Assembly (NCBI RefSeq): GCF_019331695.1
Contig: NZ_JAHBBI010000008.1
Location: 62,001 to 126,000, forward strand
Direction: 5' to 3'
DNA length: 64,000 bases
From: Bifidobacterium pluvialisilvae
GTDB lineage: Bacteria > Actinomycetota > Actinomycetes > Actinomycetales > Bifidobacteriaceae
Part shown: piece after piece, positions 2,036 to 63,610 of the stretch
Numbering within the stretch: position 1 is the first letter of the stretch
Layout of the letters: each line of letters starts with the position of its first letter
Program-made: the position numbers and the translations under genes
The notes under the pieces: generated by a model
Seen by the model: only the letters and a program-made list of their open reading frames with translations
Told to the model about the DNA's origin: nothing
Databases searched by the model: none

Positions 2036-2250
2036 CGCGGTGACCGGGTGCGCTGCATGTGTGACTGGGTGCATCGCGCGTGACCGGGTGCGTTGCGTAT
2101 GTGACCGGGGGCGGGTGTGCCGGGTCACGCACTTGTCGAATCCCTTGTTTTTCAACGTTTTGCAAGTGGCGTTACTGGGTGCGGGTGTGCCCGGTCACGA
2201 TAAGGTGTGCCCGGTCACGGTATACGTGCTCCCGGTCACGTAACGGTGGC
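2036..2250. repeat. Class C nested inverted-repeat array (GTGACCGGGTGC arms)
   Basis: Immediately after the stop there are four forward copies of a motif like GTGACCGGGTGCG. A central stretch containing TTTTTCAACGTTTTGCAAG (about 2149-2168) follows, then several reverse copies like GCCCGGTCACG. Related copies built from the same arm motif lie after the GH43 gene at 11941-12165. Nothing here looks coding. The remaining 100 bp before 2355 hold only an AT-richer leader of the peptidase gene. Confidence 0.75.
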
Positions 2251-2354
2251 CGTCTCGCGTAACGGTGGCCATCGCATAATTGCCGAAGTTGGGGTATTGT
2301 GGTTGATTTGGATTTGTCGACCGGAGAGATGTAACGAACGGGGACAGACGGATT

Positions 2355-5177
2355 ATGACACAGCCCAATCAGCCCATTATCAACACCGAAGCCAACGCCG
2401 ATATCGCCGATATCAATGCGGCGATCGCGGCGTATCCGCGGGCGAAGGCCCGTACGCTGCGGTTCTCGCTTGGCGCGCCGCGTACGGCCACCGTCGTCGA
2501 CGACGGCTCACGCGCGCTGTTCCTGCGGTCGCGCGACCCGCAGGACGCGGTCATGTGCCTGTGGATGAGCTGGTTCGACGGCGCGGGACGCCATCACGAG
2601 ACGTTGCTGGCCGACCCCCGCGACCTGTTCGCCGCCGCCGGCTCGAACACGGCCGAGGCCGGCGTGCCCGACGAGGAGAAGGCCCGCCGCGAACGCGCCC
2701 GCGAATCCGCGGCCGGCATCGTGTCGTACAGCGTCAACGAATCCGGCAATCGCGTGACGTTCACGGTCGGCGGCCGCCTGTGGCTCACGACCATCGTGTT
2801 CGACGGCGACCTCGAATTCATATCCGAACTCAATTCCGACGGCGACGATAGCGGCGACGACTTCGGCACGGCGGGCGGCGACTCGCGCCGCGGACCGGCC
2901 CGCGTTACGGTCGAGGAAGGCGAACTCCACGCCGTCACCCGCGAACTCGGCGACACCTGGTACGTATCCGCCATGGCCGTGCACGGCCACCCCGGCCGAC
3001 TGTTCCGACCCGTGCTCAACCCACGCATCTCGCCCAACGGCAAGCTCGTCGCCTATACGACCGGGCGCATGATCAACCTCGTCGTCATCGGCGAGAACGG
3101 CGCCCCCGACGACGAACGCTCCATCTGCGGTGTCTACGACGACCCGAACGTCACCGTCGGCCTGGCGGAATTCGCGGCCGGCGAGGAAATGGACCGCTAC
3201 GACGGATTCTGGTGGTCGCCCGACTCGAAGAGCCTCCTCATCGAACGCGCCGACGAATCGGCGGAGCCGGTCTGGCACATCAGCGACCCGGCGAACCCGA
3301 CCGCGCCCGCCCGCACGCGACACTATCCGCAGGCGCTCACCAAGAACGCCGACGTACGACTGTTCCGATTCGACATCGGCGACATCGAGCACCGCGCCGC
3401 CAACATGGCGTACTCCAGCATCGTCGACCTGCCGGAAGTCTGGTGGGACCGCCACGGCTACGAATACCTCGCCGACGTGCATTGGAGCCGCGGCGGCGAC
3501 CCGCTGCTGCTCGTGCAGAACCGCCGACAGACCGCCGACCAGGTGCTCACCATCGGCGAGGAAGGCAGCAATCCCAACGTCGGATACGCCTCCCAGCAGA
3601 GCATCCTCGACGGATTCGCGCTCGAACAGGACGGCGGCGCGCTCGCGGCCGAGGAACGCCACCGCTGGCTGCCGACCAGCCCGCTGACCGTCAGCGGCAG
3701 CCGGTACTGGCTCGATCTGATCCACGGCTGCCCGGCGTGGACGCCCGACGGCCGCCTCATCACCGCCATGCCCGACGAGGAGACCGACACCATGCGTCTC
3801 GCCGTCGACGGCCACGCGTTCACGCCTGTCGGCTGGCAGGTGCTTTCGGTGCTCGACGTGACCGACCATGACGTGCTGGCGCGCGCGGCCCGCGACGCCC
3901 GCGGCGTCGACGTGGTGAGCTTCCCGCTGCCGTCCGCAGGCCAGGAGTTCGTCGGCTCGTACTGGCAGGAGGTGCGTGACGACAGTCGTGGCATCGAAAC
4001 CCCCGACGCCCCCAACGCCAACGGTTTCGGCAACCGGTTCGCCGCCGACTCCGACGGCGACTACGACGCGTCCGGCGAATCCGCCGCACCAAAGGTGCTC
4101 AACCCCGAGCCGGGCGTGTGGACGGCATCCCGCACCGGCGACGGCGTGGTGCTCTCCGGCCGCACCATGCGCGACGCCAAATCGGTCATGATCCACATGG
4201 TGGACGGATCGTCGGGGGAGCCGGTCTCCGCGACGATCACGAACCATGCCGAAACGCCCGGATTCACGCCCAACACGACGTTCGTCCGGCTCGGCCGGCG
4301 CGGCATGCACGCGGCGATCACGCTGCCGTCGGCCGGCAGCCCGTACGCCCACGCCGAAACGCTGCCCGTGCTCATGAAACCGTACGGCGGGCCGATGCAC
4401 CGTGAGGTCATGCTCGCGCAGTCGATGTACTGGGATGCGCAATGGTGGGCCGATCAGGGATTCATCGTCGTGGCGGCCGACGGACGCGGCACCGGCGCCC
4501 GCGGCCTCGCCTGGGACCACGCCATGTTCGAACGGTTCGCCGACGTGGCGCTTGAGGACCAGGTCGAAGCCGTGCGCGCACTGCCCGAGGCGATGGGGGA
4601 GATCCTTCGACTCCGGTCTGCGACCTCCGCTCAGGATGACAACGGGGGAGTGCGTCCCGCTCAGGATGACAATGGGGGAGTGCGCCCCGCTCAGGAGGAC
4701 AACGGGGGAGTGCGCCGTCCCGTACAGGATGACAATGGGGGAGTGCCCAAGCCCGACCTCGACCACGTGGCCATGATCGGCTGGTCGTTCGGCGGATTCC
4801 TCTCCGCGCTCGCCGTGCTGCGCGCGCCCGACGTGTTCGCCGCGGCCTGCGCCGGCGCCCCGCCCACCGACTGGACGCTGTACGACACCCACTACACCGA
4901 ACGCTACCTCGGCCTCAACCCGCGCGTATACGAGCGCAACAGCCTCATCGCCGACGCGCCGAACCTGCGCCGCCCGCTGCTGCTCATCCACGGATTCGCC
5001 GACGACAACGTGACCGTGGCCAACACGCTGCGCCTCAGCTCCGCGCTGCTCGCCGCCGGCCGCGAACACACCGTGCTGCCGCTCACCGGCATCACCCACA
5101 TGACCAACGACGAGACCGTCGCCGAAAACCTGCTGCTCTTCCAGCGCGACTTCCTGCGCAAGGCGCTCGCGGAGTAG
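2355..5177 (+). CDS. S9-family prolyl peptidase (DPP IV type) with repeat-derived insertion
   Basis: This 940-residue serine exopeptidase should cleave dipeptides after proline or alanine. No signal peptide is visible, so it is probably intracellular. The N-terminal half is the DPP IV beta-propeller and includes the double-Glu anchor for the substrate N-terminus (E277-E278 in AAGEEMDRYDGFWWSPD). The C-terminal alpha/beta-hydrolase domain has the triad S811 (GWSFGG), D883 (ADDNVT) and H915 (GITHMTND). Between PEAMG and PDLDHVAMIG an extra segment of about 50 residues (about 4598-4745) is translated from an intergenic repeat and gives four DDNGGV/EDNGGV units. The insertion lies on the hydrolase domain before the nucleophile elbow and keeps the frame, so the enzyme may still fold. 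The family and catalytic assignment are firm; activity with the insertion is unknown. Confidence 0.9.
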   Translation: MTQPNQPIINTEANADIADINAAIAAYPRAKARTLRFSLGAPRTATVVDDGSRALFLRSRDPQDAVMCLWMSWFDGAGRHHETLLADPRDLFAAAGSNTAEAGVPDEEKARRERARESAAGIVSYSVNESGNRVTFTVGGRLWLTTIVFDGDLEFISELNSDGDDSGDDFGTAGGDSRRGPARVTVEEGELHAVTRELGDTWYVSAMAVHGHPGRLFRPVLNPRISPNGKLVAYTTGRMINLVVIGENGAPDDERSICGVYDDPNVTVGLAEFAAGEEMDRYDGFWWSPDSKSLLIERADESAEPVWHISDPANPTAPARTRHYPQALTKNADVRLFRFDIGDIEHRAANMAYSSIVDLPEVWWDRHGYEYLADVHWSRGGDPLLLVQNRRQTADQVLTIGEEGSNPNVGYASQQSILDGFALEQDGGALAAEERHRWLPTSPLTVSGSRYWLDLIHGCPAWTPDGRLITAMPDEETDTMRLAVDGHAFTPVGWQVLSVLDVTDHDVLARAARDARGVDVVSFPLPSAGQEFVGSYWQEVRDDSRGIETPDAPNANGFGNRFAADSDGDYDASGESAAPKVLNPEPGVWTASRTGDGVVLSGRTMRDAKSVMIHMVDGSSGEPVSATITNHAETPGFTPNTTFVRLGRRGMHAAITLPSAGSPYAHAETLPVLMKPYGGPMHREVMLAQSMYWDAQWWADQGFIVVAADGRGTGARGLAWDHAMFERFADVALEDQVEAVRALPEAMGEILRLRSATSAQDDNGGVRPAQDDNGGVRPAQEDNGGVRRPVQDDNGGVPKPDLDHVAMIGWSFGGFLSALAVLRAPDVFAAACAGAPPTDWTLYDTHYTERYLGLNPRVYERNSLIADAPNLRRPLLLIHGFADDNVTVANTLRLSSALLAAGREHTVLPLTGITHMTNDETVAENLLLFQRDFLRKALAE
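4598..4745 (+). repeat. Family A hairpin repeat translated in frame inside the S9 peptidase
   Basis: The segment starts GATCCTTCGACTCC, continues with the hairpin GGTCtgcGACC (4615-4625) and CCGCTCAGGATGAC. It then has a 30-bp tandem (GCTCAGGATGACAACGGGGG type) with repeats at 4631, 4661 and 4691 and a diverged 33-bp unit after that. These are the same words found in intergenic copies, for example at 20023-20143 and 33194-33312. The frame stays open throughout. Confidence 0.9.
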
Positions 5178-5203
5178 ATGCGACTGGGGACGGCGGTGCC
5201 CGG

Positions 5204-5342
5204 CCGCCCCGGTTGTTCGCCAAACTCACCGCAACCCCGGTTGTTCGTCGAAATCCACCGCGAATCAGCCGTTTCGACCGGCGTGTTGCGGTGAGAATCG
5301 CCAACAACCGGCTTTGCGGTGAAAATCGCGAACAACCGAAGA
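5204..5342. repeat. Class C nested inverted repeat (CGGTTGTTCG arms)
   Basis: Two forward units CGGTTGTTCG (5210 and 5238) are mirrored by CCAACAACCG (5301) and CGAACAACCG (5329). The arms extend inward: CTCACCGCAAC near 5226-5236 pairs with GTTGCGGTGAG near 5285-5295. The whole forms a long cruciform-capable structure in the gap between the peptidase and the permease. The rest of the gap to 5546 shows no gene. Confidence 0.8.
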
Positions 5343-5546
5343 CGGATGAAAGCCCCCGCCCCACCCCGCCCCCGGTCACGCAACGGCGAATCGCAGGTGA
5401 AATCCTCCCCCGTTTACACGAATTTCCTGTAGGTTCTGTACTCTAGTGCAATTGCCGCATACAAGCGGCGTTCCGTCGTGCATCGTCGCGTCTGTTCGCC
5501 GAAACGGGAATGCATCAGCGAACAGACGCGGCGGGAACGAGGATAT

Positions 5547-7016
5547 ATGCAGGACGTCGAGGAGCTTGACGCGGAAAACCAGATGAACCGTGGCCTGAAG
5601 AACCGCCACGTGCAGTTCATCGCCATCGGTGGCACCATCGGAACGGGCCTGTTCCTCGGTTCCGGCAAATCCATCTCGCTCACCGGACCGAGCATCGTCT
5701 TCGTCTACATCGCCGTCGGCATCATCATGTTCCTGCTCATGCGCGGCATCGGCGAGATGATGTACCGCGACCCCAGCCAGCACACGTTCATCAACTTCAT
5801 CACGCGGTATTTGGGCCGCGGCTGGGGGCATTTCGCCGGCTGGACGTACTGGATCGTGCTGATTCTCATCGGCATGAGCGAAATCACCGCGGTCTCCACG
5901 TATTTCGTCACGTTCTTCGACACGTTCGGCATCGATCTCAGCCATTGGAAATGGCTGATCGAACTGTGCTTCCTCGTGGCGCTGTCCGGCATCAACCTCA
6001 TCGCGGTGAAGGTGTTCGGCGAGGCCGAATTCTGGTTCTCGATGATCAAGATCACGCTGATCTGCGGCATGATCGCCACCGCCGTCGTGATGCTCGTCAT
6101 CGGATATCATTACCCGGCCGTGCAGATCACCGGCTCCGACCACGTCAGCCCCGCCGGCGCCGTGAGCCTCACCAACATCACCGACGGATTCTCGCTCGCG
6201 CCGAACGGCTGGCTGGCCCTGCTCATGAGCTTCCAGATGGTGTTCTACGCCTATCAGATGATCGAATTCATCGGCGTGACCGTGTCCGAGACCGAAAACC
6301 CGCGCAAGGTGTTGCCCAAGGCCATCAACGAAATCATCCTGCGCGTGCTGATCTTCTACGTTGGCGCGTTGATCGCCATCATGGTGATCGTGCCGTGGCG
6401 CAATTTCCAGCCGAACGCCGACGGATCGTTCGCCTCGCCGTTCATCATGGTGTTCAAATACGCCGGCCTCGACTGGGCGGCCGCGCTCGTGTTCTTCGTC
6501 GTGATCACCGCCGCGTCGTCGGCGCTGAACTCGCTGCTGTACTCCGCCGGACGACACCTGTACCAGCTGGCGAAGGATTCGCCGTCGCCGGCCATGCAGC
6601 GCCTCGGCGTGGTATCCAAAAACCAGGTGCCGGCGAAGGCCATCATCGTGTCGGCGGCCATGATCGTGCTCTCGCCGATCATCAATGCGTTCCCGCAGGT
6701 TTCCAGCGCGTTCGTGCTGTTCTCGTCGGCGTCGTCCGCCGTGATCATCTTCATTTACACGCTGACGATGATCGCGCATCGGAAATACCGTGTCTCGCCC
6801 GATTTCATCGCCGATGGCTATATCATGCCGGCGTGGAAAATCACGAATACGCTGGCGATTGCGTTCTTCGTATTCGTATATTGCACGCTGTTCATCTCCA
6901 GCGATACGCGAGGCCCGGCGATCGCAGGCTTGGTGTGGCTGGTGATTTTCGGCGGGTTCTGCCAGTGGAGGCAGCGGTTGGAGGACCGCGACCTCAAGCG
7001 CGCCATCAATTCATGA
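5547..7016 (+). CDS. Amino acid permease, APC superfamily (CycA/AnsP-like)
   Basis: This 489-residue inner-membrane proton symporter has about twelve hydrophobic segments. The AAT-family signature is clear: LKNRHVQFIAIGGTIGTGLFLGSG in TM1, a Glu/Pro-containing TVSETENPRKVLPKAI loop, and ASSALNSLLYSAGRHLYQLA in the TM8 region. The C-terminal half recalls E. coli D-serine/D-alanine/glycine permease CycA. The substrate cannot be fixed from sequence. The open frame runs back to 5478, but ATG 5547 has a ribosome site (GAACGAGGA) about 6 nt upstream and gives the usual short charged N-terminus, so I start there. It converges on the AEC transporter gene, and the shared gap carries AATTCATGAATCG/AATTCGTGAATT arms. 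Confidence 0.88.
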   Translation: MQDVEELDAENQMNRGLKNRHVQFIAIGGTIGTGLFLGSGKSISLTGPSIVFVYIAVGIIMFLLMRGIGEMMYRDPSQHTFINFITRYLGRGWGHFAGWTYWIVLILIGMSEITAVSTYFVTFFDTFGIDLSHWKWLIELCFLVALSGINLIAVKVFGEAEFWFSMIKITLICGMIATAVVMLVIGYHYPAVQITGSDHVSPAGAVSLTNITDGFSLAPNGWLALLMSFQMVFYAYQMIEFIGVTVSETENPRKVLPKAINEIILRVLIFYVGALIAIMVIVPWRNFQPNADGSFASPFIMVFKYAGLDWAAALVFFVVITAASSALNSLLYSAGRHLYQLAKDSPSPAMQRLGVVSKNQVPAKAIIVSAAMIVLSPIINAFPQVSSAFVLFSSASSAVIIFIYTLTMIAHRKYRVSPDFIADGYIMPAWKITNTLAIAFFVFVYCTLFISSDTRGPAIAGLVWLVIFGGFCQWRQRLEDRDLKRAINS

Positions 7017-7075
7017 ATCGTCGGATATCGACGTTGTTAGCGGTAAAAACAGGCGTATCTCGCAATTCGTGAATT
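7008..7075. repeat. AATTCatGAATCG inverted arms between convergent genes
   Basis: AATTCATGAATCG (7008-7020) and GCAATTCGTGAATT (7062-7075) form imperfect inverted arms around an AT-rich centre containing ACGTTGTTAGCGG. Both arms overlap gene ends. The same arm sequence recurs on the other side of the AEC transporter gene (8095-8162). Confidence 0.65.
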
Positions 7076-8051
7076 AAAAAATCACCGCCGAGATCGCCGT
7101 CAACGAAATCAATGAGAACAACGTCGATACCAGCACCATTCCCACCGCATACTCCGGCATGTTCTTCGACCGTCCGGAGAACATCGCGATCGTCGTCATC
7201 GTCGGCAGACCGGAAATCAACGCCATCATCTCGATCATCTCGTGCGTGAACGGCAGCCCGGTCGCGCCGGCGAACCACGTCATCAGCGCCGCGAAACCAA
7301 TGGGGAACAGCAGCATCTTGATGACCATGCCCACATACAGTTCGTATTTTCCGAAAATCCCCCACCATTTCGTCAACGCGAACAACCCGCCCAGATAGAA
7401 CAGCGACAGCGGCGTCGACATCTGGCCGATCGTATGCAACGGCGTCAATATGACGCCGGGGATGCGTACACCGGCTGTGATGATCGCCAGCGCGATAAGA
7501 ATCCCGATGAACGCCGGATTGGCGAAACGGCGCAGAAAACCGACGGCGCGGCGCGAGAACGGGACTGCGACGCGTTCGGCGCCGGCATCACGCACCGGCT
7601 CGCACAACCATACGCCGTACGACCACAGCAGCGCCTGATCGACCAACGACATCAGCACGATGAAAATAGCGCCGTCCTTGGGGAACAACGCCATGACCAG
7701 CGGAATGCCGATGAACCCTGCGTTGCCGAACATGAACCCCGCCTGGAACAGATGGCTGCGGCTGCCATGCAGACGCAATATCCACGCCGCGACCGCGACC
7801 ACAGCCGCCAGCAACGCATACATGATCGCCGTCAGTGCGATGATGCCCCAGTTGCGGACGATGTCGGCGCGCGTCGTGCCGGCGACCGCGTTGCTGAACA
7901 CGAGCACGGGGATGAGCACCTTCGTGAGCAGCATGCACATGCCGTCGAGCGTTTTCATGCCGTAGAACCGCAGGCGGACGCAACCGTACCCCACCATCAT
8001 CATGATGAAAAACCCGACGATCTGGCCGACCACGATCTCGAACTGCGACAT
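7074..8051 (-). CDS. AEC (auxin efflux carrier) family transporter
   Basis: This 325-residue inner-membrane transporter has about ten hydrophobic segments. It starts MSQFEIVVGQIVGFFIMMMVGYGCVR and contains LFQAGFMFGNAGFIGIPLVMALFPKDG, the family's hallmark asparagine- and glycine-rich discontinuous helix. AEC proteins export or import small carboxylates such as malate or malonate; the substrate here is not known. The ATG at 8051 is preceded on its strand by GGGAGG at ideal spacing. The gene is convergent with the permease and divergent from the first GH43 gene. Inverted repeats with the arm word AATTCACGAATC bound it on both sides. Confidence 0.85.
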   Translation of the reverse strand: MSQFEIVVGQIVGFFIMMMVGYGCVRLRFYGMKTLDGMCMLLTKVLIPVLVFSNAVAGTTRADIVRNWGIIALTAIMYALLAAVVAVAAWILRLHGSRSHLFQAGFMFGNAGFIGIPLVMALFPKDGAIFIVLMSLVDQALLWSYGVWLCEPVRDAGAERVAVPFSRRAVGFLRRFANPAFIGILIALAIITAGVRIPGVILTPLHTIGQMSTPLSLFYLGGLFALTKWWGIFGKYELYVGMVIKMLLFPIGFAALMTWFAGATGLPFTHEMIEMMALISGLPTMTTIAMFSGRSKNMPEYAVGMVLVSTLFSLISLTAISAVIF

Positions 8052-8094
8052 GCTGCCTCCCTTTGCCCATCGGGGATGATACTCAGGGGCGTTG

Positions 8095-8162
8095 AATTCA
8101 CGAATCGTGAAATACCCTCATTGTGAGCGCTAAATTTGCGGGTATTTTGCGATTCGTGAATT
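8095..8162. promoter_or_regulatory. Long inverted repeat between divergent AEC and GH43 promoters
   Basis: Two 23-nt arms, 8095-8117 (begins AATTCACGAATCG, ends AAATACCC) and 8140-8162 (begins GGGTATTT, ends CGATTCGTGAATT), are complementary except at two positions. The 22-nt loop carries TTGTGAGCGC (8121-8130), one half of a lac-type operator. It lies in the shared 192-bp intergenic region and could control both genes. The function is inferred from position. Confidence 0.65.
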
Positions 8163-8207
8163 GGATATACGCTAAAATATTCCAGAATAGCGTTGTTTGC
8201 GCTCACA
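8121..8207. promoter_or_regulatory. Pair of LacI-type operator half-sites upstream of GH43
   Basis: TTGTGAGCGCTAAATT (8121-8136) and TTTGCGCTCACACG (8196-8209 region) each match one half of the ideal TGTGAGCGCTCACA operator, in opposite orientation and about 75 bp apart. Between them, TATTCCAGAATA (about 8178-8190) is a further palindrome within ACGCTA...TAGCGT. Spaced operators of this kind suit repression by a LacI-family sugar regulator. No such regulator is encoded in the window. Confidence 0.45.
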
Positions 8208-8243
8208 CGGGGAAGAGGAGCCCCACTTGATCGAGGAGGATTA

Positions 8244-11200
8244 ATGAGCCTTATTCGCAAAATCACTGCGGCCGGCGCCACGGCGGCGTCGCTGCTCGCA
8301 CTGTGCGTGGGCGTATCGCCGGCGATGGCCGATAGCACCGGTGCCGCGGCAACGACGCCGGCCGCCGACACGGCGCCGACGTTGCTTGCGAGCTGGGATT
8401 TCACCGGCAAGAACGGCACGGACAGCGGCAGCATCGCCGATTCGACCGGTAAATACAAGATGACGCTCAACGGTGGCGTGTCGGTCGGCAAGTTCGGCGA
8501 CCACAGTGATAACGAGGCCTTGAACCTCAACAACGATTCAAGCAGCGCCAAGTACGCGCAGATCGACGACCAGCTGTTCAAGGACGCCGGCGACTCGTTC
8601 ACGCTCGAGTATGCGGCGAAGTCGCGTCACGCCGACGACGGCAACTACTTCACGTTCGCGGTCGGCCAGAACTACAACAAGTACTTCTTCAACTACATCA
8701 GCACCACTGCGGTCAAGACGGTCATCTCCGACAACAAGTGGAGCAACGAGCACGGTGAAAAGGTCGCCGTCTCCAATAACAACAACGTCTGGCACAACTA
8801 CAAGATCGTCGTCGACGGCACGAACATCGGCGTATGGCGCGACGGCACGCTCATCAGCTTCACCGCCAACACCGGCATTACGATGAGCGACCTCGGCGGC
8901 TACACCACGTACATCGGCAAGTCGTTCTACGACGGCAGCGCCTCCGGCATCGGCACCGACAAATACTGGAACGGCGCCATCGACGACATCAAGGTGTACA
9001 AGGGCGCCGAACTGACCGAGCCGGAGTCGGTCGCGATTTCCGGCACCGGCGTGGCCGATAACAAGCTCACCCTGATCGAGAAGGCGACCGCCAAGCTCAC
9101 CGCCACCGTCAAGCCCGACGACGCCGTGAGCAAGGACGTGAAGTGGGAATCCTCCGATACGAAGGTCGCGAAGGTGAGCGCCGACGGCACCGTGACCGCC
9201 GTCGCCAAGGGCGAGGCCGCCATCACCGCCACGACCGCGGTCGGTGGCAAGCGCGATTCGATCACCGTGACCGTGAACCCGATGAACGCGCACGACGCGG
9301 CCACGGCCGACCTCGACGCCGCCATCGCCGCGCTGAAGAAGACCACCACCGAGAACCTGCCGCTCGTCTCCGAAGGCACGCAGAACGGTTCCGCAATCAC
9401 GTGGACGTCGTCGAACGACAAGGTGATCACCGGCACCGATGCCAACTACAAGGCGCCGGCCAACGGCATGGCCGACCCGTACAAGGGCGCCGGCATCGTG
9501 ACCCGCCCGGCCTACGGCGACGGTGATTCCAAGCCCGTGACGCTCGCCGCCACCGCCAGCTACAAGGGCGGCGAGAAGGTCACCAAGACCGTCGACGTCG
9601 TCGTCAAGGAGAAGACGCGTTCCGTGCCCGACGGCGCATACGCGGCCGTCACGTTCCTCTCCGACGCCGCCACCACCAACGGCAAGATCGGCGAGGCGCT
9701 GTACGAATCCGCCACCGACGGCAACAACTTCTTCTCGTTCAAGGAGATCAACAACTCCAACCCGGTCATCGTCTCGAACACCGACACCAAGGGCCTGCGC
9801 GACCCGTACGTGCTCAAGTCCAAGGACGGCGACAAGTTCTACATGATCGCCACCGACCTCAAGGTCTCGTCGCAGGGCTGGGGCCAGAACCAGCAGTACG
9901 GCTCCCTCAAGCTCGAGGCATGGGAGTCCACCGACATGGTGAACTGGACGCGCACCAACGCCGAGGACGGCGACACCGGCATCAAGGTCAACGCCGACAA
10001 CATGGGCATGACCTGGGCTCCGGAGGCGTTCTGGAGCAACGAACTCAACTCCTACGTCGTGTTCTGGTCGTCCCGTGAATACACGGACGACACGCGTTCC
10101 ACCGCGGTGAAAAGCTCGAAGACCGGCGGCGCGTACAACATCGTGATGATGGCCACGACGCGCGACTTCAGGACCTTCACCCCGGCCCAGAAGTGGCAGG
10201 ACACCCAGTACTCCCGCATCGATTCCACCGTGTTCAAGATCGGCGACACCTACTACCGCCTGACCAAGAACGAGGAGGGCGGCAAGGCCGGCGACTACAT
10301 CACCACCGGCAAGTCCACGTTCCTCGAGCGTTCGAAGTGCCTGACCTGCGAGACGACGTCCGCCGACCCGAACGCCGACCTCACCAAGACCTGGCAGCTC
10401 GTCGACCAGAACATCCTGCCGTTCGAGGGCCCGGAGTCCATCAAACTCAACGCGGGCGACCCGAACCAGAACGAGGCCGGCGACGCGATGATCATCATGG
10501 CCGATTCCGGCGGCTACAAGCCGTACATGACCAGCGAATCCGCGCTCGCCGCATCCGGCTGGACGAACCGGCTTTCGCAGACCAACGGCTGGGCCACCGA
10601 AAAGCAGTGGGGGCCGGGCGTGACCGGCAAGGTGACCCCGACCAACATGCCGACGCCCACCCGTCACGGTGCGTTCGTGAACGTCTCGGCCGCCATCGCC
10701 GAGAACATGCACAAGTGGACCGCCGACAACCCGACGAAGATTGCCGCCGTGGAATCCACGACGACCGCCGAGTACAACGCGGATTCCCGTGAAATTGCGG
10801 CGACTGTTAAGGCGGATGACAAGGGCACGGTCGCCGGTTCGGTGAAGTTCACGTCGGAGGACGGCAAGTGGTCCAAGACCGTGAAGCTCGACGCCGACGG
10901 CAAGGCCACGGTGACGGTGCCCGGCGACGTTTCCGGCAAGATTACGGTTGCATATGACGGCTACACCGATGGACTGGTCAAGGCGTCCTCGACCGAGGTT
11001 GAGGGCGTGAAGGTGACGCCGTACAGCGTCAAGGATTTGGCCAAGGTGACTGCCGTGTATGCCGATAATGGCGCCTCGGTGGATGGTTTCGACCCTGCGT
11101 CGGAGAGCCCCGTGAGCATCGACAAGGGCAAGAAGGTGAAGCTGCAGGGCGTGCCCGAGTCGCCGAAGGCGTGGACGGTCAAGGAGGCGGCCGATGCCAC

Positions 11201-11717
11201 TGGCCAGGTGTTCACCGTGACCAGCCCCGACGGCGGATTCATCATGACCTACACCTTCGCGTTCAAGACCGACGGCGGTGAGGGCGGCGACAAGCCCACC
11301 CCCGTGAACTACGACGCGCTCAAGGCGCAGATCGCCCGCGCCGGGAAGCTCGCCCGCACCGACTACACGTCGGCTTCCTGGGATGCGATGCAGGCCAAGC
11401 TCACCGCGGCCAACAACGCGCTGAAGTCCACGGATCAGAACGCCGTGAACAAGGCCGCCGACGAGCTGAAGGCTGCCATCGACGGACTGGACAAGGCGAC
11501 GTCGAGCCCGGCGCCGAGCGCGAAGCCGAGCGGTTCCACCAGCGCGAGCGCGAGCTCAGGCGCCACGTCGTCGGCCGGCGCCGACCAGTACGGTGGCAAC
11601 GAGCAGCAGCCGAACAAGCTGGGCCGCACCGGTGCCGCCGTTGGCGTCGTGGCCGTCGTGGCGCTCGTCCTCGCCGCCGCCGGTGGCGTGGTGCTGCTGC
11701 GCAAGCGTCGCGCGTAG
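8244..11717 (+). CDS. Cell-wall-anchored GH43 glycosidase (LamG-BIG2-GH43-FIVAR)
   Basis: This 1157-residue secreted enzyme is a probable alpha-L-arabinofuranosidase or arabinanase. A signal peptide (1-30, cut after SPAMA) precedes a LamG/concanavalin-like module (about 48-255), a BIG2 Ig-like domain (about 256-343) and an atrophied Ig-like domain (about 344-460). The GH43 five-blade propeller (about 465-835) has catalytic base D520 (GLRDPYVL), pKa modulator D660 (SRIDSTVF) and acid E728 (FEGPES). Further Ig-like segments follow, then a helical FIVAR module (about 1022-1083), a Ser/Gly linker and the sortase signal LGRTG (1126-1130) with a membrane segment and RKRRA tail. ATG 8244 has GAGGAGGA upstream; the earlier in-frame codons lie in the regulatory region. 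It is the first of four adjacent glycan-degradation genes. GH43 subfamily and linkage specificity cannot be settled by eye. Confidence 0.9.
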   Translation: MSLIRKITAAGATAASLLALCVGVSPAMADSTGAAATTPAADTAPTLLASWDFTGKNGTDSGSIADSTGKYKMTLNGGVSVGKFGDHSDNEALNLNNDSSSAKYAQIDDQLFKDAGDSFTLEYAAKSRHADDGNYFTFAVGQNYNKYFFNYISTTAVKTVISDNKWSNEHGEKVAVSNNNNVWHNYKIVVDGTNIGVWRDGTLISFTANTGITMSDLGGYTTYIGKSFYDGSASGIGTDKYWNGAIDDIKVYKGAELTEPESVAISGTGVADNKLTLIEKATAKLTATVKPDDAVSKDVKWESSDTKVAKVSADGTVTAVAKGEAAITATTAVGGKRDSITVTVNPMNAHDAATADLDAAIAALKKTTTENLPLVSEGTQNGSAITWTSSNDKVITGTDANYKAPANGMADPYKGAGIVTRPAYGDGDSKPVTLAATASYKGGEKVTKTVDVVVKEKTRSVPDGAYAAVTFLSDAATTNGKIGEALYESATDGNNFFSFKEINNSNPVIVSNTDTKGLRDPYVLKSKDGDKFYMIATDLKVSSQGWGQNQQYGSLKLEAWESTDMVNWTRTNAEDGDTGIKVNADNMGMTWAPEAFWSNELNSYVVFWSSREYTDDTRSTAVKSSKTGGAYNIVMMATTRDFRTFTPAQKWQDTQYSRIDSTVFKIGDTYYRLTKNEEGGKAGDYITTGKSTFLERSKCLTCETTSADPNADLTKTWQLVDQNILPFEGPESIKLNAGDPNQNEAGDAMIIMADSGGYKPYMTSESALAASGWTNRLSQTNGWATEKQWGPGVTGKVTPTNMPTPTRHGAFVNVSAAIAENMHKWTADNPTKIAAVESTTTAEYNADSREIAATVKADDKGTVAGSVKFTSEDGKWSKTVKLDADGKATVTVPGDVSGKITVAYDGYTDGLVKASSTEVEGVKVTPYSVKDLAKVTAVYADNGASVDGFDPASESPVSIDKGKKVKLQGVPESPKAWTVKEAADATGQVFTVTSPDGGFIMTYTFAFKTDGGEGGDKPTPVNYDALKAQIARAGKLARTDYTSASWDAMQAKLTAANNALKSTDQNAVNKAADELKAAIDGLDKATSSPAPSAKPSGSTSASASSGATSSAGADQYGGNEQQPNKLGRTGAAVGVVAVVALVLAAAGGVVLLRKRRA

Positions 11718-11744
11718 GCTCCGCCTAGCGGAATTCGCTGATTC

Positions 11745-11776
11745 ATCGACCCTCTGCGTTCGCGTAGGGGGTCGAT
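11745..11776 (+). terminator. Stem-loop after first GH43 gene
   Basis: ATCGACCCTCTGCG pairs with CGCGTAGGGGGTCGAT across a short TTC loop, with G.T wobbles, 28 bp after the stop codon. A GT-rich rather than a pure T tail follows. Confidence 0.6.
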
Positions 11777-11934
11777 TGCGTTGTTAGGGTGGGGTGGGGC
11801 TGATTCTGGTGTTTGCGGCGGTGATGCTCCGTGGCGTGGAGTGTTTATTCTGGATGAACTGGCCGGTTCCTTGACGGGGACGTGATTTGGCATGGAACGC
11901 CGGATATGCCGTTGTGCTCGTTCCGTGCCGCGAA

Positions 11935-12165
11935 GTCACGTGGTGTGACCGGGTGCGTTGTATCGTGACCGGGTGCACCCGTACCGGGTCACGCCTTCGC
12001 GAAAACGTTGCAATTTCAACAATTGTATCGGCGCATGACCGGGTGTACCTGTGCCCGGTCGTGTGGCTGTCGCACCCGGTCACGTGGTTGCCGCGCCCGG
12101 TCACGTGACCGCCGCCGTGCCCGGTCACGCATTGATGCCCCTGGTCACGTGGCTGTTGAACCGTG
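11935..12165. repeat. Class C nested inverted-repeat array (GTGACCGGGTGC arms)
   Basis: Forward copies of GTGACCGGGTGC (from 11945) and reverse copies of GCACCCGGTCACG (to about 12155) surround the core AACGTTGCAATTTCAAC (about 12003-12020). The arm word is the same as at 2036-2250. Weaker repeats of the type TTGAACCGTGGTGGCG continue to about 12290. No gene is credible here. Confidence 0.75.
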
Positions 12166-12363
12166 GTGGCGTAGCGCCGTGGGGGTGGCGCGCCGCTGGG
12201 CAGCCATGCCGCATCGCCGTTGAGCCGTGATGTCGCCGAAGAGGCGTGTCGCAATGCCATTGAACCGCATTGCTGGTGGACGATAAAACTGCTTTGCTGG
12301 CTGTGTCTTGCGATGGGCATTTTCCACCCCCGAAAAATAATCCGATTTTTTTCGAGACACGGC

Positions 12364-12391
12364 TTGTGGGAGCCTTAACATCTGGTACACT
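12364..12391 (+). promoter_or_regulatory. Candidate sigma-70-type promoter for an RNA
   Basis: TTGTGG (12364-12369) and TACACT (12386-12391) are 16 bp apart in a locally AT-rich stretch far from any start codon. Transcription would start near 12398. Confidence 0.4.
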
Positions 12392-12397
12392 AAAAAT

Positions 12398-12760
12398 GTG
12401 CTTGTTAACCTTCACAAAGCAGCGTGGAAGCCGTTTTGCGGAGTGCGATAAGTGCAATAAGCAATGAATCGTCAACGGATGGTGCCGCCGGCAAAACCTG
12501 AGAAGCTTGCCGGGGGTTTCCGCCCGTGACATTGATTCTCGACGGCGGAGGCAGTGATGCTTCCGGTCGGACCGACGAAAATCATCCATTGCCCGATACC
12601 GATGAGACATTGACGCGGGAAAGAACGTTCTTCCCCGCCCTACCATCAAAGGAGCTGTAACCGCCTCTCTTTTTTCATTTCCCCTTTAGAAACCCCTGCT
12701 ACGCGATCGAAGAACCATGTTCTAGCCTCTTTTCAGGTTCTTCGGTCGCGTAGTTTGGTT
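12398..12760 (+). ncRNA. Candidate structured non-coding RNA
   Basis: About 360 bp sit between a plausible promoter and a strong terminator, with no credible reading frame. Visible helices include GCTTGTT/AATAAGC (12400s with about 12460), CCGGCAA/TTGCCGG, GGAGGCA/TGCTTCC around a GTGA loop, and the near-palindrome GCGGGAAAGAACGTTCTTCC (from about 12615). It does not match the conserved words of RNase P RNA, tmRNA or T-box leaders that I know. An alternative is a short leaderless peptide starting at ATG 12396 (MCLLTFTKQRGSRF...), which I consider less likely. Function unknown. Confidence 0.3.
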
Positions 12761-12762
12761 TT
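12699..12762 (+). terminator. Strong intrinsic terminator
   Basis: CTACGCGATCGAAGAACC (12699-12716) pairs with GGTTCTTCGGTCGCGTAG (12736-12753), 18 bp with one G.T pair, followed by TTTGGTTTT. It would end the candidate RNA starting near 12398. Confidence 0.75.
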
Positions 12763-12800
12763 GGGACAGGCCGCGACTTGTTATGGTGCTTGGACGGCTG

Positions 12801-13275
12801 GGCGGCATGTGTTACTCGACACACTCAAGGCCGTTCGGCCAAGCCTACGGTCGAGTAACACATGCCGCCCGGCCTTGGTACGCCGTACTGCCGTCGCGGC
12901 GGTGCTGGAGGGTGGGCCGTTCGGCCAAGCTTACGGTCGGACAACATATATCAGACCGCCTTGGGGGCGCTGGTTTTCCGTCGCGGTGGTGCTGGAGGGT
13001 GGGCCGTTCGGCCGAGCCTACGGTCGAGTAACACATGCCGCCCGGCCTTGGTACGCCGTACTGCCGTCGCGGCGGTGCTGGAGGGTGGGCCGTTCGGCCG
13101 AGCTTACGGTCGGACAACATATATCAGACCGCCTTGGGGGCGCTGGTTTTCCGTCGCGGTGGTGCTGGAGGGTGGGCCGTTCGGCCAAGTCTACGGTCGA
13201 GTAACACATGCCGCCCGGCCTTGGTACGCCGTACTGCCGTCGTGGCGGTGCTGGAGGGCGGGCGTTCGGCGGGTG
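12801..13275. repeat. 173-bp tandem repeat made of two related half-units
   Basis: The word ACGGTCGAGTAACACATGCC recurs at 12847, 13020 and 13193, an exact 173-bp period. A related half-unit starting ACGGTCGGACAACATATATC lies at 12933 and 13106, so each period is an 86-bp plus an 87-bp half. The halves share GGTGCTGGAGGGTGGGCCGT and the palindrome GGCCGTTCGGCC. An inverted partial copy (GGCGGCATGTGTTACTCGAC, 12801-12820) precedes the array. Reading frames through it are by-products of the periodicity. Confidence 0.9.
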
Positions 13276-13279
13276 GGGC

Positions 13280-13427
13280 ATTCACTTTTTTTGCGAGGCT
13301 CAAAGAGTGAATCGGAGTCGCTCAACAATACTCATGGAAGTTGGAAAATGTGTGGTTCCGCGGGTTGGGAGTGTTTGTATGAACAGCCGGGCATTCACTC
13401 TTTGGCAGACCGCAAAAAGAGTGAATG
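13280..13427. repeat. Two ATTCACTnTTT / AAAGAGTGAAT hairpins
   Basis: ATTCACTTTTT...CAAAGAGTGAAT spans 13280-13312 and GCATTCACTCTTT...AAAAAGAGTGAATG spans about 13391-13427. The arms are nearly identical in the two hairpins, which lie about 110 bp apart downstream of the tandem array. The stretch from 13428 to 13680 shows no gene. Confidence 0.6.
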
Positions 13428-13686
13428 AGGATTGAGGAAGGCGGGCGCCTCTTGCTCTATGGTGAGCGGTCACAGTAGAATTGTGAGAGTTCACATCATG
13501 AGTGGGTGTCGAATATCGAAAGCGCAGGACTACGTAGTTCGGCGACGACGGTGGCAGAACGCATGAGCGGCGTGAACACAGCCAACAACAACGAAGTACC
13601 GCGCGCCGAATGGCCGCCGTGAGGAGCTGCGTCAACCCGATTCGCCGTCGAATATCGGTCGATTCAACAGAGAACCGCCCGACATT

Positions 13687-13715
13687 GATAACAAAACGAT
13701 AACGAATTGATAACA
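13687..13715 (+). promoter_or_regulatory. Three GATAAC motifs exactly 11 bp apart
   Basis: GATAAC occurs at 13687, 13698 and 13709, about 50-75 bp before the TTG start of the large GH43 gene. The 11-bp phasing would place the sites on one helical face, as expected of a cooperative DNA-binding regulator. The regulator is unknown. Confidence 0.45.
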
Positions 13716-13760
13716 ACGCGGTGGTGGCCGAGCCGATGCTTCCAGGAGGAAGGATTCTCG

Positions 13761-16700
13761 TTGAGGAGAGCCAGACAACTCGCGGCATTGATAGCCGCGA
13801 TATCGACGCTGGGCGTAGGGCTGACGCTGCCGCCCGTCGCGTCGGCCGAAGAAAGCGGCGCGACGTCGCCCGCAATCAGCACGACCGGGGCAGCGTCGTC
13901 AACCACAGCGTCGTCAATAGCGACGGCGAACACGACGAAGGCCGCCGCCGACCCAATCGCCAGTTTTGATTTCAACGCCGATCCGACCGACGGCGTGTTC
14001 GCCGACGCCGGCAAGGCCAAGGCGACCGTCAATGGCACGGCGAATCTCGTCGCAAGCAAGGATGCCGCGAACGGCAAGGCCGCCCAGCTCGGCCAGAACT
14101 TCTGGATGAACGTCACCAAGTCCGACGGCAGCCCGCTGCTTGCCGGCCTCAACGACGTCACCATCAGTTACGATTCCAAGGCCACGGCCACCGGCGGCCA
14201 GTGGACCGTGTTCGCCGCGCCAAGCGACGCCGCCGTCAACGGCAACGCGCCGACATATCTCGGCGTGCTCGACCGCACCGACAAGACCCGCGTCGAACGC
14301 TACCTCAATGGCCGCAACAACGACACCGCCACCATCGACCAGAACGCAGGCACCGCCGGCAACTGGAAGCACGTGGACCTCGTAATCTCCGGCACGACGG
14401 CGAAACTCTACGTCGACAAGAAATTCGTGGCCAGCAACGTGAATGGCGAGGAGCTCAAGACCATCCTCGGCGGCTCCGGCGGCGTGCTGCAGATCGGCAA
14501 AGGCAACTGGGGCAACGGCGAATACTTCACCGGCCTCATCGACAACCTCAACATCTACGGCAGCGCGCTGTCCGCCACCGATCTCGGTGCCGCGGTGCCA
14601 AGCAAGCTCCATATCGACGGCAATAGCGTGGCCGATGATGGCACGCTGAGCCTGAGGGAAGGCTCCAGCACCACGCTGAGCACATCCGTCGAACCGAGCA
14701 GCGCCGACCCCACCGTCACGTGGGAATCGGATAATCCGGCTGTCGCGAAGGTCTCCGCCGCCGGCAAGGTGACCGCCGTCAAGGCCGGCACCGCCACCAT
14801 CACCGTGACCTCCGAGGCCGCGCCGACCGTGAAGGCCACGCTCAAGGTGACCGTCGAAACCGTCAAGGCCGACGATGCCTACGGCTACGCGATGGTCCAC
14901 TTCATCGAGAACAACAAGGGCTACGCGGAGAAGATCTACCTCGACATCTCCCGCGGCGACGACGCCACCCAGTGGGATACGCTCAACGGCGGCCAGCCGA
15001 TCCTCGCGAACAACGAGAGCACCACCGGCGTGCGTGATCCGTTCATCGCCTACAATCCCGAATCCAAGACCTACTACATCCTCGCCACCGACCTGCGTGT
15101 GTTCGGCGGCGACAACGCCGGCTGGGGCACGTGGTCCACCGGCTACAGCACCAAGTTGCATGTGTGGGAATCCAAGGATCTCATCCACTTCAACGACATG
15201 ACCGAGCTGGAGACCGCCACCGAGGACGCCTACACGAAGAACCCCGCCAAGACGCAGACACTCAAGGACACCGTCACCGGCAAGACGATCTCCGATATCG
15301 GCATGGCATGGGCGCCCGAAGCAACCTGGGTGCCGAACTTCTACGATCTCAACGACGACGGCATCGCCAACGGTTCCGACAAGGACAATCCGAAGGACCA
15401 GCAGGGCGGTGCGTTCGTCATGTACTGGTCCACCTCCGCCAAGTACGACGGTGAGAACAACCAGCCCGGCAAGAAGGTCACCCACGTGCTGTGGGCGGCG
15501 ACCAAGGACTTCACCAACGCCACCTACCAGTTCGGCGGCGTGTTCGTGCCGAACAGCAAGTACCGTCCGGGCAACACCATCGACACGACGATGATCCAAC
15601 GCACCATGAAGGGCGATGACGGCAGCGAGCATCTGCGCTCCTACCGCACCACCGGCTCCGGCACCATCTTCATGGAATACACCGATCGCGCCGACTGGTG
15701 GCGCGCCAACGACAACGGCCAGTACGCCACCGACCCGGCCCAGGGCTGGGTGCTGCGCCAGAACAACGTGGGCCACACGCTTGGTTCCTCGCAGGAGGGC
15801 GCCAACGGTTTCAAGGTCAACGGCCAGGACAAGTGGTACATGTTCGTCGACAACTACGGGTCCGTCGCCTCCGGCGCACGCTACGGCTACAACCTGCTCG
15901 AATCCGACGACCTCGACGCGGCCGACGGCAACGTGTGGAAGCCCGTCGGCAACGACGGCTTCTTCCTCACCGCGAACACCAAGCACGGCGGCGTCGTCTC
16001 CCTCACCAAGGCGCAGTACGACGCGATCCGCGCGGCCGACGCGAAGGCGAGCGACAATCAGAACCTCACCGTCGCCGACGAAATCACCGTCGGCAAAAAC
16101 GCCACCGCCGACGACGTGAAGGCGGCCCTGCCGGCCACCCAGAAGGTCACGCTTGCCAACGGCTACGGCACCGCCGACCGTGACGTCACGTGGGACGTCT
16201 CCAAGGTCGACACTGCCAAGGACGGCACCTACACCGTCAAGGGCACCGTCGACACCATCGGCGCGGCGAAGAACCACTGGAAGTGGACGAACGCGGCCGG
16301 CGATACCAAGACCGACGAGGACGACCTCATCAACGAGGGCGTGAACGCCAACAACAGCTGGAAGCAGACCGGCGGCTTCGTCGACAACGCAACCGCGCAG
16401 AAGAACCGTCCGCTCTACAGCTCCACCGCCATCACCGTCACCGCCAAGGTGAAGGTCGGCACCGGCGCGACCACGCCGACCAACCCCGACCTGCTCGCCG
16501 ACTTCACGTTCGATACGGCCCCCGCCGACGGCACGTTCGACGGCGGCAACGCGACCGGCGCCACGCAGGGCACCGCCACGCTCGCCGACTCCAAGGACGA
16601 CGCCAACGGCAAGGCCGCGAAGCTCAGCAAGGACTTCTGGCTCAACGTCACCGCCAAGGACGGCTCGCCGCTCCTCAAGGGCAAGACCGACGTCACGATT

Positions 16701-19964: not shown

Positions 19965-20022
19965 CCGTGCGCACGCTGGTGTGGCCAGGTGCGCCTGCAC
20001 CTTGTCACGCCGTTCCCCGCCG

Positions 20023-20264: not shown

Positions 20265-20690
20265 ACCGTCGTCGTGTGCGCCGCGTGCCGGACTTCGCAG
20301 TGCGTGCTGGACTGTGCGCCTCGTGCTGGATTGCGTCGTGTGTGCTGGACTGTGCGCCTCGTGCTGGATTGCGTCGTGTGTGCTGGACTATGCGCCGCGT
20401 GCTGGACTTTGGGCTGTGTGACGGGAACGAAAACGTTGGAATTGCAACGTTTGTGATTTTCGGTTCCCGTCACGTAACGCGAAGTCCAGCACGTAAGGCC
20501 AAGTCCGGCACGCAAGTCCTGCGATGCGGGGCCAAGTCCAGTATGTAGGCCGAAGTCCAGCACGCAGGGGCCACGACGTAGGGCCACATTCGGTGTGCAG
20601 GGCCTTCGGCACAACGTCAAGTCCAGCACACAGGGCTAAGTCCAGCACACAACGTCAAGTCCGGCACGCAGGGCCTACGACGCGGCGTAA
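20265..20690. repeat. Class C nested array (GTGCTGGACTG arms)
   Basis: About seven forward copies of GTGCTGGACTG/GTGCTGGATTG (20285-20410) face about eight reverse copies of AAGTCCAGCAC (20480-20670). The core AACGTTGGAATTGCAACGTT (about 20432-20452) is flanked by GGGAACGAAAA and TTTTCGGTTCCC. It fills most of the gap before the third GH43 gene; only about 60 bp of leader with the ribosome site AGAGGAGAATC remain. Confidence 0.85.
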
Positions 20691-30094: not shown

Positions 30095-30245
30095 TTTTTG
30101 GCGAGTTGTGGGTGTTCGTATGACGATATCCGCGCCGTCTTTGGTAGCGTGAAAAACGCGAATCGTTGATTTTCCAATGTTTTGTGCATTCCCGAAATCA
30201 ACGAATTCCGGGCCTACGCACAATCAAACACCCACGACTCGGGTT
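30095..30245. repeat. Class C nested inverted repeat (GAGTTGTGGGTGTT arms)
   Basis: Outer arms GAGTTGTGGGTGTT (30103-30116) and AACACCCACGACTC (30227-30240) pair with one G.T wobble. Inner arms CGTTGATTT (30164-30172) and AAATCAACG (30195-30203) are perfect. It occupies the divergent promoter region of the alcohol dehydrogenase and hydrolase genes. Confidence 0.8.
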
Positions 30246-60244: not shown

Positions 60245-60250
60245 GCTGAT

Positions 60251-63466: not shown

Positions 63467-63469
63467 GCA

Positions 63470-63610
63470 TGGCGTTTCTGCGAGTTGTGAGTCTTTGATT
63501 GGCGATATCGGGGTTTTCTCTGATTACGGACATTGAAATTTCAACGATCTCGAATAGGGGAAGGGCCGTTGTTCTCAAGTAAAGCCTCACAACTCGATGT
63601 TTAGGCCTTA
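63470..63610. repeat. Class C nested inverted repeat (CGAGTTGTGAG arms)
   Basis: Outer arms CGAGTTGTGAG (63481-63491) and CTCACAACTCG (63586-63596) are perfect complements. The central CATTGAAATTTCAACG (63531-63546) is nearly palindromic. It starts just after the helicase stop. Confidence 0.8.

What the first reader, a model, noticed from the sequence alone, without database searches (positions are those of the whole stretch)
2036..63610. Nested palindrome arrays with locus-specific arms and a shared CGTTGnAATTnCAACG core
At 2036, 11935, 20265, 30095 and 63470 (and, without the clear core, at 5204) long symmetrical elements have outer arms that are specific to the locus, often several copies per side: GTGACCGGGTGC, GTGCTGGACTG, GAGTTGTGGGTGTT, CGAGTTGTGAG, CGGTTGTTCG. 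The centre in most is related: AACGTTGCAATTTCAAC, AACGTTGGAATTGCAACGTT, CGTTGATTT..AAATCAACG, CATTGAAATTTCAACG. A common centre with private, mirrored, amplified arms is not explained by ordinary terminators. It may be a hairpin-amplified element class or a nucleoid or termination signal. I know of no description, but I cannot search.
Basis: seen in the sequence. Interest (0 to 1): 0.8.

Follow-up and report, generated by a model that had tools for sequence, protein, structure and literature searches.

The report
Shared-core palindromes with swappable arms
Some bifidobacteria carry many non-coding mirror-image DNA elements between their genes, built around one constant 16-letter centre and flanked by repeated arms that differ between species but keep much the same spacing, which points to an unknown protein that docks there.

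Summary
The genome (2.66 Mb, a Bifidobacterium relative) holds 65 copies of CGTTGNAATTNCAACG with at most 2 mismatches; the reversed control gives 2. In the sampled third of the genome CGTTG-Nn-CAACG occurs 21 times at n=6, 0-1 times at any other n, never in coding sequence. Of 170 core sites from 24 family genomes, 88 have mirrored flanks above a 99% null (72 above a stricter one). The arms are not locus-specific. They come from at least six genome-wide families, at fixed distances from the core (about 39-41 bp for the inner arm in three unrelated families). Between species arms tend to change together while core and spacing stay. The core also stands alone: twice, 87 bp apart, in the nitrite/sulfite-reductase promoter of six genomes; beside tRNA genes; and in a DnaA-box cluster between parA and gidB. 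Its two free positions vary independently in this genus, as at a dimer-bound DNA site, while flanks pair. No RAYT gene was found in core-bearing genus genomes. Best reading: a protein-anchored palindromic platform acting as intergenic punctuation; the protein is unknown. Terminator hairpin and mobile palindrome remain live rivals.

The parts
2040..2239. Family A palindromic array (GTGACCGGGTGC arms; one search finds 5 in one orientation then 3 in the other), starting within 5 bp of the aldo/keto reductase stop codon
   Evidence: similar array at the orthologous place in G002
2142..2157 (.). Degenerate core remnant (5 mismatches)
5209..5338 (.). Palindrome with CGGTTGTTCG arms (2+2), a family without the core
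   Evidence: the 7 relatives looked at do not show this palindrome downstream of the peptidase gene, and in G004 a palindrome with other letters lies there (in 5 of the 7 only the downstream flank of the peptidase gene could be placed)
11945..12148 (.). Family A element: inner palindromes on both sides of the core plus outer half-arms
12006..12021 (.). Core CGTTGCAATTTCAACA (1 mismatch)
20284..20668 (.). Family B array: 7 inward CGTGCTGGACTT arms left, 7 right, most on a 19-bp lattice
   Evidence: RNA fold of 20270-20690 z = -13; compact copy in G002, none in G004 or G005
20434..20449 (.). Core CGTTGGAATTGCAACG (exact)
30102..30241 (.). Family D element (CGAGTTGTGGGTGTT arms), between divergently oriented called genes
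30164..30179 (.). Weak core CGTTGATTTTCCAATG (3 mismatches)
63481..63596 (.). Family D element (CGAGTTGTGAG arms), about 15 bp after a called stop codon
63531..63546 (.). Core CATTGAAATTTCAACG (1 mismatch)

Best explanation
These are members of a dispersed, non-coding, intergenic class of core-centred palindromes in bifidobacteria. Shown: a constant 16-bp dyad core; at about half of the sites mirrored arms, in G000 from a few genome-wide families; arms at fixed distances from the core whatever the spacer sequence; arms that tend to be alike within a genome and to differ between species while core and spacing persist. Inferred: the core is the binding site of a dimeric, sequence-specific DNA-binding protein; the arms are docking sites and/or hairpins held in fixed register to it; copying between loci (conversion or transposition) plus slippage homogenises and multiplies them. 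The complex works as punctuation between genes: a barrier or terminator facing both ways that separates transcription units, sets off tRNA genes, and perhaps marks origin-proximal chromosome. The protein is not identified.
For: Core enrichment 65 against 2, 21 against 0 exact. Strict spacer: 21 at n=6 against 0-1 for the other spacers from 0 to 19 in 155 kb intergenic, 0 in coding; 10 of 12 five-pair hairpins with a NAATTN loop have the CGTTG stem. 168 of 170 core sites lie outside called genes. In the window's genus the two N positions pair no more than chance: 6 of 19 (6.1 expected) and 23 of 78 (24.9 expected), as at a dimer site. Core without clear arms in a promoter: two copies 87 bp apart before nitrite/sulfite reductase in six genomes. 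Core inside a DnaA-box cluster between parA and gidB in G000, G002, G006 and G007. Arm distances: A 41/41 in most, then about 61 and 82; C 39/39, then 80-81; D 40 or 50 left, 50 right. Within-genome likeness: the nearest neighbour of an arm set is in the same genome for 47 of 88, shuffled mean 12.2, maximum 25. Same A layout with other letters in G002 and G007.
Against: No candidate protein. Flanks just outside the core pair within elements beyond expectation, which a plain operator does not need. In the sister genus g5 the N positions pair more than expected (26 of 42, P 0.039), and behind tRNA genes the core is the top of terminator-like hairpins. Sense-strand G.U exceeds A.C mismatches 115 to 75 (bootstrap 0.503-0.704), though not element by element (24 against 18, P 0.44), which hints at RNA. 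Half of the cores have no clear arms. Within-genome likeness could be recent dispersal alone; shared ancestry was not corrected for, and four of the 88 are near-identical tandem duplicates (L130, L170). Of 12 ortholog pairs scored, only 5 are less alike than both genomes' best paralogs; 6 lie between and 1 above. B spacing (19 bp) is not a helical multiple and the circular statistic showed no special period.
Confidence: 0.42

Rival explanations
1. RNA hairpins: the elements are long, often bidirectional terminators or 3'-end stabilisers, and the core is a favoured hairpin tip (CGUUG-NAAUUN-CAACG).
For: At 10 sites 5-12 nt behind tRNA 3' ends the core tops a predicted hairpin, clearly followed by a T-rich stretch in about 6 of the 10 (by eye). 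In tandem settings 36 of 45 armed elements are nearer to the upstream gene's end. G.U exceeds A.C in sense 115:75. The array at 20270-20690 folds with z -13. D arms are followed by TTTT in 7 of 9 copies (by eye).
Against: AATT and the 6-base spacer are fixed, and N-N' do not pair beyond chance in the window's genus. Armed elements are at most mildly depleted between divergent genes (8 of 66 against 87 of 427; one-sided P 0.06, two-sided 0.12). No terminator-like hit at the arrays in window 1-20000, where 18 were found against 17.4 in shuffles (loops of 3-8 only). Two cores sit in the nitrite/sulfite-reductase promoter and one in the parA-gidB DnaA cluster. RNA structure alone does not predict the same arms at unlinked loci.
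Confidence: 0.3
2. Non-autonomous mobile palindromes (REPIN- or MITE-like), mobilised by an unrecognised transposase; the core is simply the conserved middle of the mobile unit.
For: Presence/absence at orthologous slots and different families in one slot; an F pair nearly identical over about 130 bp inside unrelated flanks; arm sets within a genome more alike than expected from shuffled labels.
Against: No Y1/RAYT gene in 8 of 8 core-bearing genus genomes, although CGTC-tagged REPs are said to lack a dedicated transposase (PMC3733652, abstract passage); no GTAG tag seen in arms A-D (by eye); no target-site duplication or clean empty site shown; core shared by unrelated arm families and found alone in a promoter.
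Confidence: 0.2
3. Chance or composition: AT-rich centres of unrelated inverted repeats.
For: Window alone is only weakly enriched.
Against: Genome-wide controls; zero control hits in the 189 family genomes tabulated.
Confidence: 0.01

Closest known systems
REP / BIME / REPIN elements with RAYT transposases (PMC3116915, abstract and outline; PMC3733652, passages)
   Same: Extragenic palindromic repeats, inverted doublets forming hairpins, several families per genome
   Different: Constant 16-bp core shared by unrelated arm families, fixed arm-to-core distances, no RAYT in core-bearing genus genomes, core also alone in a promoter and in a DnaA cluster
Intrinsic (bidirectional) terminators
   Same: Hairpin-forming, intergenic; tRNA-proximal cores top such hairpins
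   Different: Sequence-fixed loop and spacer, arms in genome-wide families, present also between divergent genes and in a promoter
Dispersed sites of chromosome-organising proteins (parS/ParB, NBS/Noc, SBS/SlmA, matS/MatP; recalled)
   Same: Palindrome of similar length scattered in the genome with regional bias in G000; one copy near parS and parA
   Different: No cognate protein found; sits inside long mirrored arrays; nearly all sites intergenic
B. longum mobile integrase cassettes (PMC2430713, passages)
   Same: Bifidobacterial, palindrome plus inverted repeat
   Different: Those carry three integrase genes and a different palindrome and inverted repeat

Membership tests
REPIN / REP (RAYT-mobilised) | Inverted doublets of short extragenic palindromes | tested here: met
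REPIN / REP (RAYT-mobilised) | GTAG tag at one end of the repeat | tested here: not met
   arm consensus of families A-D, by eye only; families E and F and the CGTC tag were not examined
REPIN / REP (RAYT-mobilised) | Y1 tyrosine transposase (PF01797) in the genome | tested here: not met
   0 of 8 core-bearing genus genomes; the only genus genome with one (G003) has no exact core
Intrinsic terminator | Hairpin followed by U-run | tested here: inconclusive
   about 6 of 10 tRNA-proximal copies and suggested for D; not at the arrays scanned in window 1-20000
Intrinsic terminator | Lies downstream of genes, not between divergent promoters | tested here: inconclusive
   armed: 45 tandem, 13 convergent, 8 divergent of 66 with both neighbours called; base 277, 63, 87 of 427
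Dimeric DNA-binding protein operator | Dyad with strict half-site spacing | tested here: met
Dimeric DNA-binding protein operator | Half-sites vary independently | tested here: inconclusive
   29 of 97 exact sites pair against 31.0 expected in the window's genus; 26 of 42 against 21.3 in g5
Dimeric DNA-binding protein operator | Cognate protein binds it | not testable with these tools
   none identified
ParB/Noc/SlmA/MatP-type chromosome sites | Regional bias on the chromosome | tested here: inconclusive
   G000 contig C18: 14 sites against 3.4 expected, P 1.4e-5, two of them the paired promoter sites; a C18 stretch maps near oriC in most but not all closed g5 genomes; no clear bias by eye among the 8 sites of G027
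ParB/Noc/SlmA/MatP-type chromosome sites | Cognate ParB/Noc paralogue | tested here: inconclusive
   two PF02195 proteins in G000; the one beside parA is a ParB; the second was judged mobile-element-like from its N-terminus only (recall)
MITE | Terminal inverted repeats with target duplication and empty site | tested here: inconclusive
   inverted arms yes; duplication and clean empty site not shown

The most novel reading that the evidence does not exclude
CGTTGNAATTNCAACG is the site of an undescribed bifidobacterial chromosome-organising protein. It marks the origin region beside parS and DnaA boxes, tRNA units and gene ends, and seeds mirrored arrays whose arms are read by fast-evolving partners, so that arms across a genome change letters together while the geometry stays.
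Probability: 0.18. Interest if true: 0.85.

Novelty: new variant of a known kind. Interest (0 to 1): 0.62.

Why it matters
If right, it defines a new class of bacterial intergenic element with separable parts: a constant core, interchangeable arms and a fixed spacing. It also gives a directly testable target for an unknown DNA-binding protein in a genus widely used as probiotics (recalled). Likeness of dispersed arms within genomes that lack a RAYT asks how short repeats are kept alike across a genome. The core next to DnaA boxes, parS and tRNA genes may tie it to core chromosome biology.

Tried and rejected
RAYT/REPIN membership: tested with PF01797, rejected for the RAYT kind. Rfam: no family in the window at gathering score. 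Plasmids: no match for the 2036 array in the PLSDB copy. Locus-specific arms: rejected. 'Unarmed cores mark divergent promoters': 23 of 62 unarmed sites are divergent, but 11 of these are the repeated nitrite/sulfite-reductase locus of six genomes; without them 12 of 51, near the base rate of 20%. Noc by ParB paralogy: the second ParB-like protein starts like a mobile-element ParB (recall), so not followed. Helical periodicity as a general law: A, C and D fit roughly, B does not, and the circular statistic was uninformative. L055 as a family swap at the L002 site: rejected, it lies some 700 bp away across two tRNA genes. Literature: sequence-string and topic searches listed no paper on this core; I read only search listings, passages of PMC2430713 and PMC3733652, and abstract plus outline of PMC3116915; most subscription papers are not in that library.

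Caveats on samples: the 860 kb of the window genome used for family counts was chosen partly around cores (20 stretches, plus the window) and partly elsewhere (20 stretches) with the core list in view; one script calls the latter 'unbiased', which it is not; it holds one 2-mismatch core. The background comes from that same sample. Gene calls are from a simple codon-usage script of mine, not an annotation; tRNA calls are ARAGORN. The 170 sites are the distinct sites with at most 1 mismatch, and at least 60 bp of flank, in all DNA fetched by then, not a census. A second, stricter null (left arm against right arm of a site in another genome group) puts the 99% mark at 26 instead of 22 and leaves 72 of 170 armed. 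The DnaA-cluster elements of other genomes that score as armed have DnaA boxes as their arms.
Full report
WHAT WAS CHECKED. Only three have a clear core (20434 exact; 12006 and 63531 one mismatch). 30164 has three mismatches, 2142 a remnant with five, and 5204 none. In the window alone the core is weakly enriched: 7 sites with up to 3 mismatches against 2.5 expected, 2 of 100 shuffles reach 7. In the genome (2,655,377 bases, 21 contigs; window = C20:62001-126000) there are 65 sites with at most 2 mismatches against 2 for the reversed pattern, and 21 exact sites against 0. Of the 9 genus genomes 8 have exact sites (8-24 each) and one (G003) has none. In the family 87 of 189 genomes have at least one, with no control hit in the table.

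WHICH ORGANISM. These pairings are inferred.

THE CORE. In 155 kb of intergenic DNA from the sampled third of the genome, CGTTG-Nn-CAACG occurs 21 times at n=6 and 0 or 1 time at every other n from 0 to 19. The 21 middles are NAATTN or one change from it. 10 of 12 five-pair hairpins with a NAATTN loop have the CGTTG stem. None of the n=6 sites lies in coding sequence of the sample. So sequence and spacing are fixed together. Among exact sites of the window's genus the two N positions are complementary in 6 of 19 (G000; 6.1 expected) and 23 of 78 (other genus members; 24.9 expected), which is chance; in the sister genus g5 it is 26 of 42 (21.3 expected, P 0.039). Just outside the core, left and right bases of the same element match more often than bases taken from different elements, clearly in armed elements and in g5, hardly in unarmed elements of the other genus members. 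Independent half-sites speak for a dimer-bound DNA site; paired flanks speak for hairpin constraint or palindrome-perfecting copying. Both signals are present.

THE ARMS. A local alignment of left flank against reverse-complemented right flank exceeds the 99% null at 88 of 170 sites: 24 of 43 in G000, 47 of 84 in seven other genus members, 17 of 43 in 16 g5 genomes. With a stricter null 72 of 170 remain. In G000 the arms fall into families A (GTGACCGGGTGC), B (CGTGCTGGACTT), C (AAGTTCTGGGGT), D (CGAGTTGTGGGTGTT), E (TTCCGTGCCAC/TTCCCTGCCAC) and F (GATGGACTGCGTTGCA). B arms point strictly inward on both sides in 5 of 5 multi-copy clusters. A has an inner complete palindrome on one or both sides in 5 of its 8 clusters. 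E and F are less regular. Other repeat families of the same genome (GTCATCCTGAGC, GGTTTGTGGGTCTA, CTCCCTCTGACGAGG, CGGTTGTTCG) showed no core at the clusters listed. Of 51 strongly mirrored intergenic regions of the sample, 10 have a core with up to 2 mismatches near their centre, against 63 of 3000 random intergenic points.

GEOMETRY. Outer edges of arms, counted from the core edge in G000: A 41 on the left in 8 of 9 elements and on the right in 7 of 9 (two chance rows left out), then mostly about 60-62 and 82-84; C 39 on both sides in 5 of 5 (one chance row left out), then 80-81; D 40 or 50 left and 50 right in 3 of 3; B 36 (or 25/44) left and 43/44 (or 36) right, then 19-bp steps with some gaps. 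Spacers between arms and core differ in sequence while lengths are kept; among nine D copies the two of the window have longer spacers than the rest. In other species the A layout (28-30-bp palindrome, about 13 bp, core, about 13 bp, palindrome) persists with other letters, for example L145 of G002 and L176 and L182 of G007.

EVOLUTION. Upstream of the S9 peptidase the intergenic slot holds an A array in G000 and G002, an E-like element in G005 with what looks like a shortened remnant in G004, a D-like palindrome without core in G001 and G008, and nothing recognised in G007; G006 has no comparable region. The B element at 20265 has 7+7 arms in G000, one or two per side in G002, and is absent from G004 and G005. 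At another slot G000 has B and G001 has C. Arm sets are most similar to another set of the same genome in 47 of 88 cases; shuffled labels give 12.2 on average and at most 25. Shared ancestry is not corrected for, and four of the 88 (L130 and L170, two each) are near-identical tandem duplicates. Of 14 ortholog pairs named, 12 could be scored: 5 are less alike than the best same-genome paralog of both members (L029/L145, L045/L176_1030, L023/L172, L031/L047, L020/L041; the last two are different families in one neighbourhood), 6 lie between the two paralog scores (L182/L126, L045/L176_1285, L023/L039, L172/L039, L031/L143, L031_2301/L147), and 1 is above both (L082/L083, two close g5 genomes). 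So concerted change is supported for part of the elements, not for all. Two F copies in G000 are nearly identical over about 130 bp in unrelated flanks, so copying does occur; its enzyme is unknown.

WHERE THE CORE LIES. 168 of 170 sites are outside called genes. It occurs twice, 87 bp apart, between a pyridine-nucleotide-disulphide oxidoreductase gene and a nitrite/sulfite-reductase gene, divergently oriented, in G000, G001, G004, G005, G007 and G008. It lies 5-12 nt behind tRNA 3' ends at 10 sites, where it tops predicted hairpins, and 79-106 bp upstream of tRNA genes at nine sites (two more at about 150 bp); GCGACACGCCG lies in between in 9 of these 11. It sits in a DnaA-box cluster between parA and gidB in G000, G002, G006 and G007, with a parS-like site nearby, and in a 10-box cluster of G031. 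On the contigs of G000 it is uneven: C18 has 14 sites with at most 1 mismatch where 3.4 are expected (P 1.4e-5; two of the 14 are the paired promoter sites); C1 has 2 where 6.9 are expected. A 20-kb stretch of C18 maps within about 50-215 kb of oriC in G022, G040, G041 and G062; in G027, G032 and G052 part of it maps farther off. Stretches of C12, C15 and C1 map roughly 300-750 kb from the origin in the three genomes searched. Other repeat families show no comparable excess on C18: GTCATCCTGAGC 42 per Mb there against 17-107 on other contigs, GTTTGTGGGTC 34 against 0-50. In the closed genome G027 the 8 sites show no clear bias by eye.

RNA OR DNA. Oriented by the nearest upstream gene, paired arms show 115 G.U against 75 A.C mismatches (58 elements, bootstrap fraction 0.503-0.704), but element by element 24 against 18 (P 0.44). 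Orientation among 66 armed elements with both neighbours called is 45 tandem, 13 convergent, 8 divergent, against 277, 63 and 87 of 427 intergenic regions in the sample: at most a mild lack between divergent genes (one-sided P 0.06, two-sided 0.12). In tandem settings 36 of 45 are nearer to the upstream gene's end, which elements that merely avoid promoters would also show. So a termination role is plausible and unproven for arrays, and better supported for the tRNA-proximal copies.

VERDICT. The best single account is a DNA site for a dimeric protein (core) with arms in fixed register, multiplied and partly homogenised within each genome, acting as punctuation between genes. The shown steps are the core, its spacing, the arm families, the distances and the within-genome likeness. 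The protein, the copying mechanism and the effect on transcription or chromosome structure are inferred. REPIN membership of the RAYT kind fails on the transposase and on the GTAG tag. Literature searches listed no description of this core. Papers seen: PMC2430713 and PMC3733652 (passages), PMC3116915 (abstract and outline).

Noticed in passing
window 4600-4747: Copies of the GTCATCCTGAGC repeat (as GCTCAGGATGACAA) lie inside the open reading frame of the S9 peptidase.
   Followed up: no
window 20031-20145, 28612, 53456: GTCATCCTGAGCGGAGG...GTCGAAGGATCT palindromes, the commonest intergenic repeat of the sampled DNA, without the core.
   Followed up: partly
window 12796-13220: About 173-bp tandem repeats with GTCGAGTAACACATGCCGCCCGGCC (copies at 12850, 13023, 13196).
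   Followed up: no
L022, L028, L029, L073 (G000): Large mixed-orientation arrays of GGTTTGTGGGTCTA: 97 intergenic hits and 1 in genes in the sampled third.
   Followed up: partly
upstream of tRNA genes in G000, another genus member and g5 genomes: GCGACACGCCG motif between the core and the tRNA gene in 9 of 11 such sites, a possible stable-RNA promoter element.
   Followed up: no
L194:4164-4450: DnaA boxes, parS and the core together between parA and gidB; a second DnaA cluster lies at 8748-8913.
   Followed up: partly
L104 (G004), slot of window 5204: A palindrome with other letters than the G000 one (CGGTCGCTCACTG / CAGTGAGCAACC) lies in the orthologous slot, so this core-less family may also change arms between species.
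   Followed up: no
L034:15432: Near-perfect palindrome GATTTGTGGTGTCTTATGGTCG...CGACCATAAGACACCACAAATC without a core.
   Followed up: no
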